Shown here piece by piece: positions 55,455-64,000 of a stretch of 64,000 nt of DNA. Source of the stretch: Streptomyces sp. V3I7 (lineage in GTDB: Bacteria > Actinomycetota > Actinomycetes > Streptomycetales > Streptomycetaceae); the NCBI RefSeq assembly GCF_030817495.1, contig NZ_JAUSZK010000001.1, positions 868,001-932,000 of the forward strand, read 5' to 3'. The first letter of the stretch is position 1; each line of letters opens with the position of its first letter. A program made the position numbers and the translations under genes. Under the pieces are notes generated by a model. The model was not told the origin of the DNA. It saw only the letters and a list, made by a program, of their open reading frames with translations, and ran no database searches.

Positions 55455-56105
55455 TCAGCCCTCGTCGGCGAGGATCAGGTACAGCTTCTTGCGGGCGTCG
55501 TTGATGACGGCCATCGCCTTCTCGCGCTGCTCCTTGGTGCCGGTCTTCCAGACCTGGCCGAAGGCCTCCATCAGCCCGAAGCCCGCCTGGCGGATCTCGC
55601 CGAGCACTTCCCAGTCGACCCCGCGGGAGGCCTCCTCCCAGGGAGCGTCGGGCCCCTCGTCGGCGGCCGTGCGGCCGCTCTCGGTGAGCGAGTACAGCTT
55701 CTTGCCGCCGTCGCTCTCGCTGACGATCAGCCCCTCGTCCTCCAGGAGTTGGAGGGTCGGGTAGACCGATCCCGGGCTGGGCTTCCACGCCCCGCCGCTG
55801 CGCTCGGCGATCTCCTGGATCATCTCGTACCCGTGCATGGGCCGATCCACCAGCAGCGCCAGAATCGAGGCCCGCACGTCACCCCGACGAGCCCTCCCTC
55901 GCGGACCGCCACGCCCTCGCGGCCCCCAGGGCCCCGGCCCGAAGCCGAACCCCCCGGGCCCGAACCCGGGGCCCCCAGGCCCCCCAGGCCCCCCGGGCCC
56001 GAACGGCCCGAAGGCGGCCCGCCGTCCGTCGAACCCACCCCGGCCATGCCGATGGGGGCCCTCCTCTCGATGTCCACGCTCGAATCCGTGCATGCGCACC
56101 GCCAT
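55455..56105 (-). CDS. PadR family transcriptional regulator
   Basis: A 216-residue regulator. Residues 10-75 are Gly/Pro/Phe-rich (for example FGPGGFGFGPGPWGPRG), common in actinobacterial PadR proteins. The winged helix follows (RASILALLVDRPMHGYEMIQ, then KPSPGSVYPTLQLLEDEGLI). A C-terminal dimerisation helix ends it (EKAMAVINDARKKLYLILAD). PadR proteins usually repress adjacent exporter or stress genes; here the next genes are transposon remains, so its target may have been displaced. The ATG at 56105 was chosen from several closely spaced starts. Confidence 0.88.
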   Translation of the reverse strand: MAVRMHGFERGHREEGPHRHGRGGFDGRRAAFGPFGPGGPGGPGGPGFGPGGFGFGPGPWGPRGRGGPRGRARRGDVRASILALLVDRPMHGYEMIQEIAERSGGAWKPSPGSVYPTLQLLEDEGLIVSESDGGKKLYSLTESGRTAADEGPDAPWEEASRGVDWEVLGEIRQAGFGLMEAFGQVWKTGTKEQREKAMAVINDARKKLYLILADEG

Positions 56106-56133
56106 CACTCCAGTCACAGTCATCGTCGATCCG

Positions 56134-56157
56134 TCGCGATAACTCAACGATATATCG
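56134..56157. promoter_or_regulatory. Candidate PadR operator
   Basis: TCGCGATAACTCAACGATAT at 56134-56153 runs into the perfect palindrome CGATATATCG (56148-56157), about 45 bases upstream of the PadR start. Two CGATA units are 11 bases apart. AT-rich dyads of this type at autoregulated PadR promoters make this a good candidate. Confidence 0.5.
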
Positions 56158-56197: not shown

Positions 56198-56315
56198 TGT
56201 CCTGTCTCACCTGTCTCAGCGACGATGCACCGGTCTCACTGAAGATTGACGACCGGCCTGTTCGTCTCATCGAAGTTTCACCAGACGGGACCGGCGATGT
56301 CCGGTCTCAGCGAAG
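56198..56315. repeat. Left-end repeats of a Tn7-like element
   Basis: A run of related motifs in one orientation: terminal TGTCCTGTCTCA (56198-56209), GTCTCAGCGACG (56213), GTCTCACTGAAGATTGAC (56233), GTCTCATCGAAGTTTCAC (56264) and GTCTCAGCGAAG (56304). Their consensus is GTCTCA-N2-GAAG-(A/T)TT-(G/C)AC. Arrays of such sites next to a 5' TGT are typical TnsB-binding ends of Tn7-like transposons. Confidence 0.75.
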
Positions 56316-56558
56316 CGGGGTTTGTCGCACTAATCTGTGTACTGACCGTGTGGTGTGCGGGGCTGGGACAGGTTTGAGTGAGACGGTGTCCCGCTTTGGG
56401 GTGGCTCTTGTCTCGGTTCAGGTGGCTTGTCTCAACCCAGTGGACATCGTCCCGGTGTGGACGATCAGGGGGAGCCGCAGAGCGGCAGGGGCAGGGCGGC
56501 CGATTTCGAGGTGGCCTGAGTTCAGGGCGGGGTCGAGGTACGCGGTTCGCTGGCGGAC

Positions 56559-56942
56559 GTGACGGAGTTGGCCTTCGAGGAAGCCGATCCGGTACGGGAG
56601 TTCCCGTCGTACCGGGGGCAGAGGAACTCTCCGGGCCTGTACTGGGCGGCCACGATGCTGCGGCATGTGGGGTTCGAGTCCTGGCTGGAGCGGGATCACG
56701 CGATCTCGATGGACTTCGACCCTCGGGTCACGTGGTTCGCGTCGCAGCCGTTCTGGCTGCACTGGACGTCGCCGGAGGGGGTGCGGCTGTCCCACGCGCC
56801 GGACTACTTCGCCCGGCGGGCCGATGGATCGGCCGTGGTGGTGGACTGCCGGCCGGAAGCCCGTCGGAGCAAGCCGCGGGACCTTGAGAAGTCTGCCACC
56901 GCCACTGCCGCTGGCTCCTCGGCGATGAGCAACACGATCTGA
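56559..56942 (+). pseudogene. TnsA-like endonuclease fragment
   Basis: The N-terminal two-thirds of a TnsA-type transposase endonuclease: VREFPSYRGQRNSPGLYWAA, HVGFESWLERDHAISMDFDP and the PD-(D/E)xK-type active site HAPDYFARRADGSAVVVDCR, with arginine where lysine is usual. After KPRDLEK the sequence no longer fits the family and ends at 56942. In another frame the same DNA already encodes a TniQ-like tail, so a deletion near 56885 fused the two. Confidence 0.8.
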
Positions 56943-57319
56943 CGCGACTGCCCGAGGTTCTGCGGGCCAACCTCCAACATCACCGGATCGTCCGCCGGGG
57001 CACCCATCCCTCCACCGCGCTAGCCTTCATCGACGCCCGCGACCGCCTGACCAGGTGGTTCACCGGTGAGAGAAGCGGAGAGCCCCTTCGGCAGAGGTGG
57101 AACCGCCGGCTCGAAGTGCTCGGTGAGGATCCGTTCGGTGATCCCCACCGCCCCTCCGAGTCCCGGATCGAAGTGGCCACCTACCCCGAAGTCATCGTGC
57201 TCACCGGCCTGTTTGCCTCCCCGCACTGGCGGGACCATCCCCAACTGCCTGCGGAGGCAGCACGCCGTTTCGGCATTGCTCAGACGCAGCTCGCGTCGGG
57301 ACTGGTCCGGAAACTGTGA
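56888..57319 (+). pseudogene. TniQ-like C-terminal fragment
   Basis: A startless frame reading EVCHRHCRWLLGDEQHDLTR, LPEVLRANLQHHRIVRRG, then a linker and PFGDPHRPSESRIEVATYPE, VIVLTGLFASPHWRDHPQLP to a TGA at 57319. CxRHxRWL with the Cys/His pair matches TniQ-family target-selection proteins. The middle transposition genes (TnsB and TnsC equivalents), expected between TnsA and TniQ, are entirely missing. Confidence 0.65.
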
Positions 57320-57353
57320 CAGCGGCCGGCGCACCATCTGACAGGCTTTGATC

Positions 57354-58013
57354 ATGAACATGCACAGCGTTTTGCTCTATGGGTGCGCGGCCGTCGTCGT
57401 CGTGTTGGGACTTCGACTCTTGGTGACGCTCGCCGCGAAGGGCTGCGACGAGACGCCTCCTCCACTGGCCTTGCTGCGGACGTGGCGGCGGCCGACCCCC
57501 AGGGCTGCCACGGGGCTGGTGGCCACCATGGCGATGCTCGGTGTGGCCCAAGTGGTTGTCCCCGCCATGATCAATGAGTTGGAGCGACACCCTCATGGTG
57601 CATGGTGGCAAGCCGTGACCGCCTTGATGGTGCAGTCGTCAGGATGGCCCCAGCTCCTGTTCAACCTGGCCGCACTCGCGGTTGTCGCTCCGGTCGCCGA
57701 GCGACTATTTGGCCCCTGGTGGATGTTGCTGGTCTTTGCGACAAGCGGTGTGACGGCCCAAGCGGTCAGCATGGCCGGCTGGAGCCTCCAAGGAGGCGGC
57801 GACTCGGTAGCGATCTGTGGCCTTGTGGGCGCACTCGCTACCTGGTACGCGGTGCGCGGCAGCGTCATCGCCCTGCGGCGAGTGGCTCCCCTCATCCCCG
57901 CCGCAGGTCTTGTTCTGTGCCTTCTCACCAACAACCACGGCATGGGCCTCCTTGTCGGCTGCGCGCTGGGGGCCGGACTGGCAATCCCTGCTCGCCCGCC
58001 CCTGGCAGCCTGA
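57354..58013 (+). CDS. Rhomboid-like membrane protein (probable transposon cargo)
   Basis: A 219-residue protein with six to seven membrane helices. SSGWPQLLFNLAALAVVAPV near residue 95 aligns with the rhomboid H-x-x-x-N helix but lacks the His. GGGDSVAICGLVGALATWYA near residue 140 aligns with the serine-nucleophile helix, with the serine kept but GxSG changed to GDSV. NNHGMGLLVGCALG near residue 195 retains a candidate His. It may be a protease with altered active site or an inactive rhomboid. It is the only intact gene inside the Tn7-like remnant. Confidence 0.7.
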   Translation: MNMHSVLLYGCAAVVVVLGLRLLVTLAAKGCDETPPPLALLRTWRRPTPRAATGLVATMAMLGVAQVVVPAMINELERHPHGAWWQAVTALMVQSSGWPQLLFNLAALAVVAPVAERLFGPWWMLLVFATSGVTAQAVSMAGWSLQGGGDSVAICGLVGALATWYAVRGSVIALRRVAPLIPAAGLVLCLLTNNHGMGLLVGCALGAGLAIPARPPLAA

Positions 58014-58391
58014 CTCAGCGTGACGGCTGGCGGCCAGATAGCTCCCCAGGAACTGGCCGCCCGTGGGGAATTACAACTGGCCACTGACAAAACTGCCACC
58101 TTCACTGCGAATCCTGGAGCAGAGCGTCTCACCATCCTGACAAAGCCCAGTCCGGGAAGTCCCGGCCTCGCCATGATCGATGAGACGCGAACTCGGCGCC
58201 GTACTCAGCCCCTCCCGAAGCCCACGGCCTCCGCGCTCTGAGTCGCAAGCCGATCTGTCACCCCACAGGTCAGCGGCCCTGTCTCGTCAAGATCTAATGA
58301 GACGGGACAGGCGAGCCGGGCCTGGATGATGGCGGCAGCGTGCCACCAGCGGCTGTTGGACGACCCGGGGAAACCCCTGTGCGGGTGCTCG
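58014..58391. other. Gap of about 380 bp with the transposon right end
   Basis: Apart from the end motif at 58278-58309 there is no supported gene. A 73-codon frame at 58020 has no ribosome-binding site or family-like sequence. The region is slightly less GC-rich than the backbone. Confidence 0.55.
58278..58309. repeat. Right-end motif of the Tn7-like element
   Basis: TGAGACGGGACA at 58298-58309 is the reverse complement of TGTCCCGTCTCA and matches the left terminus TGTCCTGTCTCA at 11 of 12 positions. On the reverse strand the site continues as GTCTCATTAGATCTTGAC, sharing GTCTCA and TTGAC with the left repeats. A second, opposite GTCTCGTCAAG lies directly next to it (58281). No target duplication flanks it. 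Confidence 0.6.
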
Positions 58392-58742
58392 CTAGGCTCG
58401 CGCCAAGTCTAACGATCCCGGTTTCACATGCTCATGTTGCGGCGACCGGTCCCGCTCGAGCCACGACTCGTAGCCCACGTGACCGACCATCGTCACCGCC
58501 CAGTGCCAGCCCGCAAAGCTCTCCCCGCCCTTCGTCCAGCGGAACGGACGTACCGGCTCAACCTCCTCGAAGCGCAGGTCCCAGGCCTTACCCAACGGCA
58601 ACCTATGACGCTCCGCAGAACTCAGAAAGTCCAGCTCAAACGCCGAAAGCGCCTCGTCACCGAATGCTCGTGCAGGTGTGGCCACCGTCGTCCCGCCCCT
58701 CGCAAGCCCAACAGCCGCGAACGTAGGGCAGCGACCCGTCAA
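58392..58742 (-). pseudogene. Second TnsA-like fragment
   Basis: On the minus strand, reading inward from the outer repeats: ALSAFELDFLSSAERHRLPL, WDLRFEEVEPVRPFRWTKGG, ESFAGWHWAVTMVGHVGYES, then WLERD, after which the frame is unrelated and stops. It is a different copy from the one at 56559: it keeps the N-terminal region and lacks the nuclease motif. The TTG at 58742 is a possible start. Confidence 0.7.
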
Positions 58743-58743
58743 A

Positions 58744-58781
58744 CTTCAGTGAGAACGGTCAAACTTCACTGAGACGAGTCA
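58744..58781. repeat. Outer inverted end repeats
   Basis: Two sites 20 bases apart in the orientation opposite to the left end: CTTCAGTGAGAAC (58744-58756) and CTTCACTGAGAC (58764-58775), each preceded by GTCAAA. Reverse-complemented they read GTCTCAGTGAAGTTTGAC, the same consensus as the left repeats. The outer edge may be TGAGACGAGTCA (58770-58781). Confidence 0.7.
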
Positions 58782-58830: not shown

Positions 58831-59382
58831 ATGGAGTTCTTCTGCCACCACCGTGACCGGACCGGCTCCCTGCCCCTGCGCGACGAGCGGCTGGAGGCGC
58901 ACTGGGCCTACATGGACCAGTACGCCGCCGAGATGATCGCCCGCGGCCCGACACTCACGGCCGACCGGGACACCCTCACCGGCAGCGTCCACATCCTCGA
59001 CCTCCCGGACCCCGCGGCCGCCCGCGCGTTCGCCCTCGACGAGCCCAACTACCAGGCGGGGGTGTACCGGGACGTGCTCCTGTTCCGGTGGCGCAACCTG
59101 CTGGGGCGGACGATGTGGGACTTCGCCGGCGGGCGGACAGGGGGCAACCGGTACCTGGTGCTCGGTCTGGGCACCGACGGGGCGGCCGCGGCCGATCTCG
59201 TCGTACCGCCCGTGACCGACGAACTCATCGCGTACGGACCGCTGTTGTCCGACGACGGCACCGCATGGCTCGGCGCGGCGGCGCTGGTACGCGCGCCGGA
59301 CCCGGACGCGGCGCGCGCCGCCCTGTCATCGGCTCCGTACACCCACGTCGAGGTCCACGACTGGCAGTTCGGTGGGCGGTAG
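58831..59382 (+). CDS. YCII-domain protein with duplicated fold
   Basis: A 183-residue cytoplasmic protein. The first half is a YCII domain (HWAYMDQYAAEMIARGPTLT, then GSVHILDLPDPAAARAFALD and AGVYRDVLLFRWRN). The second half repeats the pattern more weakly (DELIAYGPLLSDDGTAWLGA and APDPDAARAALSSAPYTHVE). Two YCII units in one chain imitate the dimer of single-domain members. The activity is unknown; some YCII proteins are dehalogenases or muconolactone-type isomerases. It is the first intact gene after the transposon remains. Confidence 0.87.
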   Translation: MEFFCHHRDRTGSLPLRDERLEAHWAYMDQYAAEMIARGPTLTADRDTLTGSVHILDLPDPAAARAFALDEPNYQAGVYRDVLLFRWRNLLGRTMWDFAGGRTGGNRYLVLGLGTDGAAAADLVVPPVTDELIAYGPLLSDDGTAWLGAAALVRAPDPDAARAALSSAPYTHVEVHDWQFGGR

Positions 59383-59456
59383 TAACCGTCGGCGGGAGGC
59401 CGTGGCGCCGTAATTCCCTTGACATCAGGCGCCCTTGTAACGGGACTCTGACCCAC

Positions 59457-60800
59457 GTGGCTTCTCCCCGGGCACCCCGTCTGCTCCCCCGGCTCCGGCT
59501 GCCGGTGGCGTATCAAGTGCTGTTCTCCCAGCCCAGGTTCCGGCGGCTGCTGCCGGCCCTGGCCGCGTCGGATCTCGGTGACGGGATGAGTGTCGTCGCC
59601 GTGCCGTGGCTGGCCATTCTGGTCGCGCCTCCCGGTCGGTCGGGGCTGTTCGTGGGGGCCGCCGTGGCCGCGTACGCGCTGCCCGGAGCCGCCGGGGCGC
59701 TGCTCTTCGGGCGGTGGCTGCGGCGGCGGCCCGCGCGGCGGCTGCTGGCCGTGGACGGCTGGCTCCGCGCGGTGCTGCTCGGATGCGTGCCGCTGGCCTG
59801 GGCCACGGGGGCGCTGCACCCGGCCGTGTACGTCGGCCTGCTCGCCGGATCGTCGCTGCTGCACGCCTGGGGCAGTGCGGGGAAGTACGCGCTGCTCGCC
59901 CAGATCCTTCCCCCGGAGCAGCGGCTGGCGGCGAACTCGCTGGTGAGCGCGAGCGCGACGGCCGCGGTCATCGTCGGGCCCGCGGTGGCCGGGTTCCTGA
60001 CGACGGCGGTCAGCCCCGCGTGGATCATCGGGCTCGACGCCGTGACCTTCGCCGTCCTGGCGGTCCAGGTCGGCCGCCTCGGCGACGCGGCCGACGCGAC
60101 CGGCGCGGCGCAGGCGGACGTTCCCCTCGGGACCGGCCAACAGGCGGCGGGGATGAGGGTGTTGCGGGGGCAGCCCGAACTCCTCGGGATCCTCGTCGTG
60201 ACGTGGTTCTTCAACTTCCTCTACGGACCCGTGGAAGTAGCCCTCCCCCTGCACGTCACCAAGGATCTGCACGCCGACGCGAGCCTGCTCGGCGTGTACT
60301 GGGCGCTCTTCGGCGTGGGCGCGGTGCTGGGCAGCGTCGCCGTGGGCGCCCTGCGCAGACTGCCGCTGTGGCCGGTCATGCTCGGCATCGTCGCCGGGTG
60401 GGGTCTGACGCTCGTGCCGTTCGGCCTGGACGCACCCGCGTCCGTCACCGTCGCCTGTTTCGCCCTGGGCGGGGTGATCTACGGGCCGTTCACCGCGATG
60501 TCCTTCACCCTCTTCCAGGAGCGGACGCCGCAGGCCCTGCTGACGACGGTCCTGGCCGTCCGGGGCGCGGCGCTGCTCACCGCGTCGCCCGGGGGCACCG
60601 CTCTCGGCGGTCCTCTCACCGCCGCGCTGGGACCGCGTTCGGTGCTCGCCGTCTCCGGGGTCACGACGGTCGCCCTGGCCGTCGTCGCCGCGGCGGGCAT
60701 GGTGATCGGGGAACGGCGGCGTACGCGGTCGCGGCCCGTGCGGGAGGCCAGGCCGGAACGATCAGAATCGGAGAAGCGCCGGACACCCGGCCCCACCTAG
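59457..60800 (+). CDS. MFS transporter (enterobactin exporter-like group)
   Basis: A 447-residue major facilitator exporter with about twelve helices (LAASDLGDGMSVVAVPWLAI near residue 35 is the first). It resembles the MFS_3/EntS group. A TTGACA at 59419-59424 lies about 33 bases before the GTG, which would fit a leaderless transcript, although the matching -10 (near 59442) is poor. No ribosome-binding site is seen at the GTG. The UvrA-like gene follows after 120 bases with its own repeat-containing promoter region. Confidence 0.88.
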   Translation: MASPRAPRLLPRLRLPVAYQVLFSQPRFRRLLPALAASDLGDGMSVVAVPWLAILVAPPGRSGLFVGAAVAAYALPGAAGALLFGRWLRRRPARRLLAVDGWLRAVLLGCVPLAWATGALHPAVYVGLLAGSSLLHAWGSAGKYALLAQILPPEQRLAANSLVSASATAAVIVGPAVAGFLTTAVSPAWIIGLDAVTFAVLAVQVGRLGDAADATGAAQADVPLGTGQQAAGMRVLRGQPELLGILVVTWFFNFLYGPVEVALPLHVTKDLHADASLLGVYWALFGVGAVLGSVAVGALRRLPLWPVMLGIVAGWGLTLVPFGLDAPASVTVACFALGGVIYGPFTAMSFTLFQERTPQALLTTVLAVRGAALLTASPGGTALGGPLTAALGPRSVLAVSGVTTVALAVVAAAGMVIGERRRTRSRPVREARPERSESEKRRTPGPT

Positions 60801-60815
60801 CCTGGCCGTCACCCC

Positions 60816-60855
60816 TATCGCTCGCACTCTTCGATTATCGCTCGCACTCTTCGAT
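60816..60855. promoter_or_regulatory. Perfect 20-bp tandem repeat upstream of the UvrA-like gene
   Basis: TATCGCTCGCACTCTTCGAT occurs at 60816-60835 and again, without a gap, at 60836-60855, about 65 bases before the ATG. A 20-base period places both copies on nearly the same DNA face, as expected for cooperative binding of a regulator. Confidence 0.6.
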
Positions 60856-60920
60856 CAGAACGACCCCGACGGAGTCCGACCGCGCAGGCGGTCCGCCCGA
60901 AAGATGGAGACCCGATAAGC

Positions 60921-63305
<2,385 letters not shown>

Positions 63306-63420: not shown

Positions 63421-64000
63421 ATGCTGCGCTTGCGAATCGTCGACGCCTTTGCCGACCGTCCCTTCTCCGGCAACCCGGCCGGGGTCCTGCTCCTCGACTC
63501 CTTCCCCGACGACGGGTGGATGCAGAACGTCGCCATGGAGGTCAACCACGCCGAGACGGCGTTCGCGCACCGGTTGCCGGAAGGCGGGGCGGCGGACTGG
63601 GCGCTGCGGTGGTTCACGCCCGTCACGGAGGTCGCGATGTGCGGGCACGCCACGCTCGCCACGGCCCACGTGCTGCACGCCACCGGCGCCCACGAGGGGC
63701 CGGTGCGGTTCGCCACCCGTAGTGGCGTGCTCGTCGCGACGCCCGGCGCGGACGGGTCGATCACCCTGGACTTCCCGACCGCCCCGCTGACGCGGGTCGA
63801 CGTACCGGCCGGGGTCGCCGAGGCGCTCGGGGCGGAGCCGGTCGCGGCGTACGACACCGGGCCGAACGTCGGCGACCTGCTGGTGGAGCTCGCCGACGAG
63901 CAGACCGTCCTCGGCCTCGCGCCCGATCACAAGGCGCTCGCCGGGCACTCCCGGCGCGGCATCATCGCCACCGCCCGGGCCACGGACCCGGCCGGCGGCC
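63421..64000 (+). CDS. PhzF family isomerase (partial, runs off the window)
   Basis: The first 193 codons of a PhzF-type (diaminopimelate epimerase-fold) protein. It begins MLRLRIVDAFADRPFSGNPA, and the family's catalytic glutamate is in MEVNHAETAFAH near residue 45. RWFTPVTEVAMCGHATLATA near residue 70 is highly conserved. PhzF of Pseudomonas isomerises trans-2,3-dihydro-3-hydroxyanthranilate in phenazine synthesis, but most homologues have other, unknown roles. The 3' end lies beyond position 64000. Confidence 0.92.
   Translation, partial: MLRLRIVDAFADRPFSGNPAGVLLLDSFPDDGWMQNVAMEVNHAETAFAHRLPEGGAADWALRWFTPVTEVAMCGHATLATAHVLHATGAHEGPVRFATRSGVLVATPGADGSITLDFPTAPLTRVDVPAGVAEALGAEPVAAYDTGPNVGDLLVELADEQTVLGLAPDHKALAGHSRRGIIATARATDPAGG

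What the first reader, a model, noticed from the sequence alone, without database searches (positions are those of the whole stretch)
56198..58309. Collapsed Tn7-like transposon with TnsA fused to TniQ by deletion
The left side has TGTCCTGTCTCA and at least four more GTCTCA-type sites; the right side has the matching TGAGACGGGACA. Between them a TnsA-like fragment runs, in shifted frame, straight into a TniQ-like tail near 56885, so the TnsB and TnsC genes were lost cleanly. About 2.1 kb remains, with one intact gene. The element can no longer move by itself, but its ends could still be used by a related transposase elsewhere in the genome, as a miniature element.
Basis: partly seen in the sequence, partly recalled or inferred. 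Interest (0 to 1): 0.72.

Follow-up and report, generated by a model that had tools for sequence, protein, structure and literature searches.

The report
Nested Tn7-like transposon remnants beside padR
In a Streptomyces chromosome one broken Tn7-like jumping element sits inside another, at a spot next to a regulator gene where such elements have landed repeatedly in related species, including tiny versions that carry no jumping genes of their own.

Summary
An inner element (56298-58309, 2012 bp) has ends TGTCCGGTCTCA and TGAGACGGGACA and a perfect 5-bp target duplication, GGCGA. It keeps half of tnsA, joined by one deletion of about 3.8 kb to the tail of tniQ, and one intact rhomboid-like gene; Streptomyces actuosus carries the undeleted relative. 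It sits inside an outer, 567-bp, internally deleted Tn7-like element (56198-58781) whose ends match 735- and 798-bp transposase-less elements elsewhere. The outer left end lies 40 bp beyond a palindrome upstream of padR. In 16 of 392 genus genomes such an end lies 36-42 bp from that palindrome (reversed-pattern control: 0), 6 of the 15 others with perfect 5-bp duplications. So the padR-phzF gap is a recurrent, apparently site-specific insertion site for Tn7-like elements. Two 633/637-bp elements without tns genes, in different species, align exactly end to end with unrelated flanks, so such units seem to move with borrowed transposase. The window's genome has no detectable TnsB. My paper searches found neither a padR site nor miniature Tn7-like elements.

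The parts
55455..56126 (-). padR-type regulator gene beside the insertion site (start codon not settled)
   Evidence: Pfam PadR 75.2 bits, cut-off 27; query that gave 80 named loci
56147..56157 (.). Conserved palindrome ACGATATATCG upstream of padR, the reference point of the insertion site
   Evidence: Present in 75 of the 80 padR loci; end motif 36-42 bp from it in 16 of 392 genomes
56198..56297 (.). Left end of the outer element, with at least three GTCTCA-type sites and a 9-bp partial duplication at the tip
   Evidence: 91-94% identical to the ends of L192 and L194; alignment
56293..56297 (.). Left copy of the 5-bp target duplication GGCGA of the inner element
56298..58309 (+). Inner Tn7-like element, internally deleted, 2012 bp
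   Evidence: Terminal motifs and perfect duplication; relative in L127
56559..56942 (+). Open frame holding the first half of tnsA; homology ends near 56890, the rest is out of frame
   Evidence: NF033179, 159 bits, profile 5-119 of 212; junction
56891..57319 (+). Tail of tniQ, joined to tnsA by a deletion of about 3.8 kb
   Evidence: 78% identical to residues 133-280 of the L127 TniQ; L127 alignment
57348..58013 (+). Intact cargo gene, rhomboid-domain membrane protein, 221 aa
   Evidence: Pfam Rhomboid 31.7 bits, cut-off 22.6
58090..58309 (.). Right end region of the inner element, terminal TGAGACGGGACA at 58298-58309
   Evidence: 79% identical to L127 541-322
58310..58314 (.). Right copy of the duplication GGCGA
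58315..58446 (.). Interior of the outer element, ending in the first codons of a DUF2199-type gene whose start codon is changed
   Evidence: L194 alignment, 77% over 153 columns; L194 gene is DUF2199, 188 bits
58449..58742 (-). Start of the outer element's tnsA, opposite orientation, truncated
   Evidence: NF033179 profile 3-50 of 212, 55.6 bits, below the cut-off; 92% identity to L192 at 58651-58776
58733..58781 (.). Far (tnsA-side) end of the outer element, terminal TGAGACGAGTCA at 58770-58781
   Evidence: 97% identical to the end of L194 over 62 bp
63421..64000 (+). phzF-type gene (runs off the window), the conserved neighbour on the other side of the site
   Evidence: Found beyond the insert in 13 of 15 occupied loci; the name is read from the sequence, not from a family scan

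Best explanation
Two Tn7-like elements are nested. An outer element went into the gap between padR and phzF, 40 bp beyond a palindrome upstream of padR. This is a preferred attachment site for one group of TnsABC-TniQ elements of the genus; by analogy with Tn7 the site is most likely recognised by that group's TniQ, and padR and its promoter are left intact. The outer element lost nearly its whole transposition operon. An inner element of another TnsABC-TniQ group inserted into the outer element's left end, making the GGCGA duplication, and itself lost tnsB, tnsC and parts of tnsA and tniQ in one deletion. Both are now immobile on their own. Shown: nesting, ends, duplication, deletion against an undeleted relative, recurrence at the site. 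Inferred: TniQ as the reader of the site, the order of the two deletions, and that such remnants could be moved in trans.
For: Perfect GGCGA duplication at 56293-56297 and 58310-58314, and a gapless alignment of the joined outer flanks to the L194 element. Outer ends 91-97% identical to two short elements beside padR in other genomes. Undeleted relative of the inner element in S. actuosus, L127. Full-length relative of the outer element in L229 with duplication GGGAC. End motif at 36-42 bp from the palindrome in 16 of 392 genomes, reversed control 0 of 392. Perfect 5-bp duplications in 6 of the 15 other loci, padR in 15 of 15, phzF in 13 of 15. The 9 TnsB pieces from padR loci other than L127 group together in the tree.
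Against: The outer element has no duplication in the window: CGTAC on the left, GCGGC on the right. Nine of the 15 other loci lack a perfect duplication or a recognised right end. Overall GTCTCA density near the palindrome is not raised over the padR loci (2.74 against 2.59 per 10 kb). Orientation at the site differs between elements, and one element breaks the sub-group pattern. Tree support values were not inspected. TniQ binding is untested.
Confidence: 0.85

Rival explanations
1. One single element from 56198 to 58309, collapsed by one deletion.
For: Both motifs are there, nearly matching inverted repeats, with a tnsA-tniQ junction between them.
Against: Flanks CGTAC and GGCGA differ, while 56298-58309 has a perfect GGCGA duplication; the sequence right of 58309 continues the L194 element whose other part lies at 56210-56297.
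Confidence: 0.04
2. The transposase-less units are only leftovers: full elements inserted, then lost their genes in place, and no unit ever moved without its own transposase.
For: Several are clearly internal deletions at the padR site: the two window elements, L188, L196, and L194 against its longer relatives in G262 and G380. G000 and G321, which hold such remnants, have no detectable TnsB.
Against: L232 and L233, 633 and 637 bp without tns genes, are 84% identical from the first to the last terminal base in two genomes, with unrelated flanks; L233 has a perfect duplication, L232 only a near match.
Confidence: 0.25
3. The padR-phzF gap is merely a tolerant region where many insertions survive; there is no dedicated recognition.
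For: The gap varies in length, from about 150 bp to several kb, in many genomes without tns genes, so other DNA enters too; the window itself has a yciI-MFS-uvrA-like stretch there.
Against: The 16 gaps fall within 36-42 bp, 9 of 16 at 39 or 40 bp; about 1.8e-4 end motifs are expected per palindrome. TnsB pieces from the site group together.
Confidence: 0.1

Closest known systems
Tn7 (TnsABC with TnsD, attachment site at glmS)
   Same: Operon order tnsA-tnsB-tnsC-tniQ, multiple binding sites at both ends, 5-bp duplications, insertion at a nearly fixed distance from a conserved chromosomal sequence (Tn7 features are general knowledge)
   Different: The site is upstream of padR, not downstream of glmS; insertion occurs in both orientations; TniQ is short (280-330 aa) and no TnsE was seen, though TnsE was not searched for
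Actinobacteria-dominated clade of Tn7-like transposons (Benler et al. 2021, PMC8649781, passages seen)
   Same: Host group and TnsA, Mu-type TnsB, TniB-type TnsC and TniQ; probably the same clade, not tested by a joint tree
   Different: That paper calls the clade experimentally uncharacterised; PadR is not mentioned in its main text
Miniature inverted-repeat elements (MITEs) mobilised in trans
   Same: Short units with both ends, perfect duplications and no transposase gene (L192, L194, L233, L236)
   Different: Ends are arrays of GTCTCA-type sites rather than simple short inverted repeats, and the units appear to hold one small gene each

Membership tests
Tn7-like transposon (inner element, 56298-58309) | TnsA, TnsB, TnsC and TniQ genes | tested here: not met
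   Only half of tnsA and the tail of tniQ remain; all four are present in the relative L127. It is a derivative, not a working member.
Tn7-like transposon (inner element, 56298-58309) | Terminal repeats with several transposase-type sites | tested here: met
   Terminal motifs 56298 and 58309; binding itself not testable
Tn7-like transposon (inner element, 56298-58309) | 5-bp target duplication | tested here: met
   GGCGA on both sides
Tn7-like transposon (outer element, 56198-58781) | TnsA, TnsB, TnsC and TniQ genes | tested here: not met
   Only the start of tnsA remains; a full-length relative is L229
Tn7-like transposon (outer element, 56198-58781) | 5-bp target duplication | tested here: not met
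   CGTAC against GCGGC; met in relatives L192, L194 and L229
Site-specific (TnsD-type) targeting of padR | Recurrent insertion at a fixed distance from one conserved sequence | tested here: met
   16 of 392 genomes, gaps 36-42 bp, reversed control 0
Site-specific (TnsD-type) targeting of padR | A TniQ/TnsD protein that binds the site | not testable with these tools
   Only indirect: TniQ types and TnsB groups differ between padR-site and inner elements
Non-autonomous element mobilised in trans (window copies) | A compatible transposase in the same genome | tested here: not met
   No TnsB hit in G000 while 10 of 12 genomes searched together gave hits, some of them weak; no other tnsA
Non-autonomous element mobilised in trans (relatives) | The same transposase-less unit at different sites | tested here: met
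   L232 and L233 align over exactly the element, unrelated flanks; duplication perfect at L233, not at L232

The most novel reading that the evidence does not exclude
Streptomyces harbour a pool of transposase-less Tn7-like cassettes of roughly 0.6-0.8 kb, apparently with one small gene each. They travel between species with TnsABC-TniQ borrowed from resident or visiting full-length elements. One group homes to a fixed point upstream of padR, where cassettes and full elements land, collapse and nest, so that this gap works as a natural loading dock for single genes.
Probability: 0.5. Interest if true: 0.75.

Novelty: new variant of a known kind. Interest (0 to 1): 0.6.

Why it matters
Tn7-like elements matter because their target choice can be precise. 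Benler et al. 2021 state that no element of the Actinobacteria-dominated clade had been characterised experimentally (passage seen). A defined site with a countable spacing, intact elements in named strains (S. luteolifulvus, S. actuosus) and natural miniatures that show how little DNA remains at the ends would make targeting and mobilisation in trans directly testable at the bench. The locus also shows how such elements collapse while keeping ends and cargo.

Tried and rejected
The single-element reading with ends 56198 and 58309 was rejected, because its flanks do not match and 56298-58309 has its own duplication. S. echinatus L088 looked at first like an empty site for L127; I dropped it because the gene beside its padR resembles the gene inside the L232/L233 units (compared by eye). 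The yciI gene to the right was used to look for an empty site; padR was not matched in any of the 29 yciI loci fetched with 1.5 kb flanks, so it gives only a bound: native sequence starts at about 58787. Relatives of the tniQ tail beside a ribD-like gene (L043, L044, L050) did not clarify the inner element's target. The idea that orientation is strictly fixed per TnsB sub-group fails for the second element of L229. No exact 10-bp palindrome was reported in the 120-bp flanks of the four non-padR elements examined, so these presumably used other sites. GTCTCA is not in excess overall near the palindrome (2.74 against 2.59 per 10 kb); the signal lies in position, not in number. G232, which carries the L194 unit, has a TnsB gene, but the tnsA and tnsC beside it are frame-broken and no canonical ends were found near it.

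Full report
Observation. The frame 56559-56942 is the first half of an actinobacterial TnsA (NF033179, 159 bits, cut-off 110, profile positions 5-119 of 212). The frame after it has no family hit of its own, but it matches the end of TniQ proteins, several of which lie in complete tnsA-tnsB-tnsC-tniQ runs of other genomes of the genus. The gene at 57348-58013 is a rhomboid-domain protein. The repeat search and the family scan also showed a second tnsA piece and a second set of GTCTCA sites on the minus strand near 58400-58780. Of the 8 matches to GTCTCANNGAAG with at most one mismatch in the window, 6 lie here; shuffles average 2.78, and 1 of 100 reached 8.

The undeleted relative. In 6 of 80 a protein search with the tns proteins of L047 finds tns genes or pieces upstream of padR: L090, L097, L110, L111, L127 and L162. 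At most 6 kb upstream are held, and in four of the 80 (L092, L109, L124, L131) almost nothing. L127, Streptomyces actuosus VRA1, aligns with the window from padR through the left end and tnsA up to window 56892, resumes at window 56891 with the tniQ tail 3.8 kb further on, and aligns again at the right end, 58090-58309. Its proteins match Pfam TnsA weakly (18 bits, below the cut-off of 26.5), rve plus Mu-transpos_C, TniB, and TniQ. It carries an SMI1/KNR4-type gene where the window has the rhomboid gene. So the window lost about 3.8 kb, most simply in one deletion with little microhomology at the junction.

Nesting. The left end of the window's locus (56210-56297) is 91-94% identical to the left ends of two short elements, L192 (735 bp) and L194 (798 bp), that sit beside padR in other genomes and show no tns genes. 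The interior of L194 resumes in the window immediately after 58309 (77%), and the last 62 bp before 58781 are 97% identical to the far end of L194. GGCGA stands before 56298, where TGTCCGGTCTCA begins, and after 58309. With the inner element and one GGCGA copy taken out, the flanks align to L194 without a gap across the join. Thus 56298-58309 is an inner element with its own target duplication, and the rest of 56198-58781 (567 bp) is an outer, internally deleted element. The outer one keeps a broken start of a DUF2199-type gene and the start of tnsA in the opposite orientation. Longer relatives of the outer element exist: L229 (genome G380) with tnsA-B-C-tniQ, a DUF2199-type stretch and the duplication GGGAC, and L227 (genome G262) with a decayed tnsC. 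In L127, too, the inner-type element appears to lie in the end of another element: CGTCTC stands on both sides, out of register by one base.

A recurrent site. In the window the outer end lies 40 bp beyond ACGATATATCG upstream of padR. A scan of 392 genomes of the genus (own genome included) for this palindrome followed within 28-46 bp by TGNCCNGNCTCA gave 16 genomes with one match each, and none for the reversed pattern. The gaps are 39 (5 cases), 40 (4), 41 (2), 38 (2), 42, 37 and 36 bp; about 1.8e-4 matches are expected per palindrome from the background of the end motif. I fetched the 15 others: 15 have padR beside the palindrome, 13 have phzF beyond the insert (one partial), 10 show tns genes or pieces and 5 show none. 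Six have a perfect 5-bp duplication: L183 GTGGC, L186 CCCGA, L191 CCGCT, L192 ATGAC, L194 CGCCC and L196 GCCGA. Nine do not: L184 and L189 have shifted repeats, L190 and L193 none, the candidate right ends of L185 and L195 are doubtful, and none was found in L182, L187 and L188. L186 and the named L110 (S. luteolifulvus) hold the same element and count once. Collapse is common here: L188 runs from tnsA residue 144 to tniQ residue 197, and L196 from tnsA 236 to tniQ 78, both without tnsB and tnsC.

Which protein chooses the site. A TnsB tree of 17 pieces groups the 9 from padR loci other than L127: L184, L195, L111 and the first of L229; L186, L190, L191 and the second of L229; and L193. L127, the relative of the inner element, groups with elements from other sites (support values not inspected, some pieces short). 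The TniQ of L229's first element is 53% identical to that of L110, the inner type about 31%. This fits TniQ as the site reader, as TnsD is in Tn7 (general knowledge), but binding was not tested. One sub-group has tnsA on the phzF side in 4 of 4 cases, the other has it on the padR side in 3 of 4, the exception being the second element of L229.

Can they move? The window's genome has one copy of the locus, no tnsA beyond the two fragments, no TniQ profile hit and no TnsB hit, although the same TnsB query gives hits in 10 of 12 genomes searched together; the hits in G140 and G376 are weak and the one in G024 is partial. The Mu-transpos_C profile search was also empty, but its control genomes were silent too. 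So the window copies are immobile on their own. Elsewhere, L232 and L233, 633 and 637 bp with no tns genes, in two genomes and with no padR match in the fetched stretch, are 84% identical from the first to the last terminal base while their flanks are unrelated. L233 has the duplication GCTAT, L232 only a near match; L236 (840 bp) has CCAGC; L228 (746 bp, beside padR) and L230 (1082 bp) have only shifted repeats. The small gene in L232 and L233 keeps 112 of 130 residues, with 28 of 53 differences at third positions. A scan of the 121 fetched loci of at least 5 kb for compact end pairs found 15 pairs, 3 with perfect duplications (L192, L194, L236), and 0 in six shifted control registers; L233 escapes that pattern. 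I read this as units that moved with borrowed transposase.

Literature. Seven full-text searches were run; only their listings were seen, apart from two papers. In Benler et al. 2021 (PMC8649781; passages only) the Actinobacteria-dominated clade is said to hold no experimentally characterised element, and Tn7-like elements are said to insert at a fixed distance from their targets; I did not test by a joint tree that the elements here belong to that clade. In Faure et al. 2023 (PMC10293859; passages only) TniQ/TnsD proteins are treated as modular target selectors. PadR occurs in neither main text, and the one paper listed with both Tn7-like and padR is on Bacillus cereus (listing only). Supplementary tables were not available, so absence from print is limited to these searches.

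Limits. The outer element shows no duplication in the window, and its right flank carries genes not seen between padR and phzF in the 80 loci. The names phzF, MFS and uvrA-like are read from sequence, not from a family scan.

Noticed in passing
window 58831-63305: A yciI gene, an MFS-type gene and a uvrA-like gene stand between the outer element and phzF; none of the three was matched in the 80 padR loci. A uvrA-like gene 88% identical lies beside a complete tns set in L048.
   Followed up: partly
L229 and L237 (G380:C1:6077000-6101000): Two tns sets stand in tandem between phzF and padR, the first with its own GGGAC duplication.
   Followed up: partly
L046, L047: Related complete tns sets lie near a gene for a small XRE-like regulator (name recalled) with different genes in between, a hint that other groups may also settle near regulators.
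   Followed up: no
L043, L044, L050: Close relatives of the inner element's TniQ tail (72-80% identical to that of L127) lie near a dihydrofolate-reductase-like (ribD-type) gene in three genomes.
   Followed up: partly
L230 4075-5156 (G386): A 1082-bp unit with inverted ends holds a gene like the small gene of L192; its flanks show only a shifted repeat.
   Followed up: no
L183 (G352:C179): A 3.4-kb insert with a perfect duplication and no recognised tns gene carries a gene resembling an IS110-type transposase (name recalled) and other genes.
   Followed up: no
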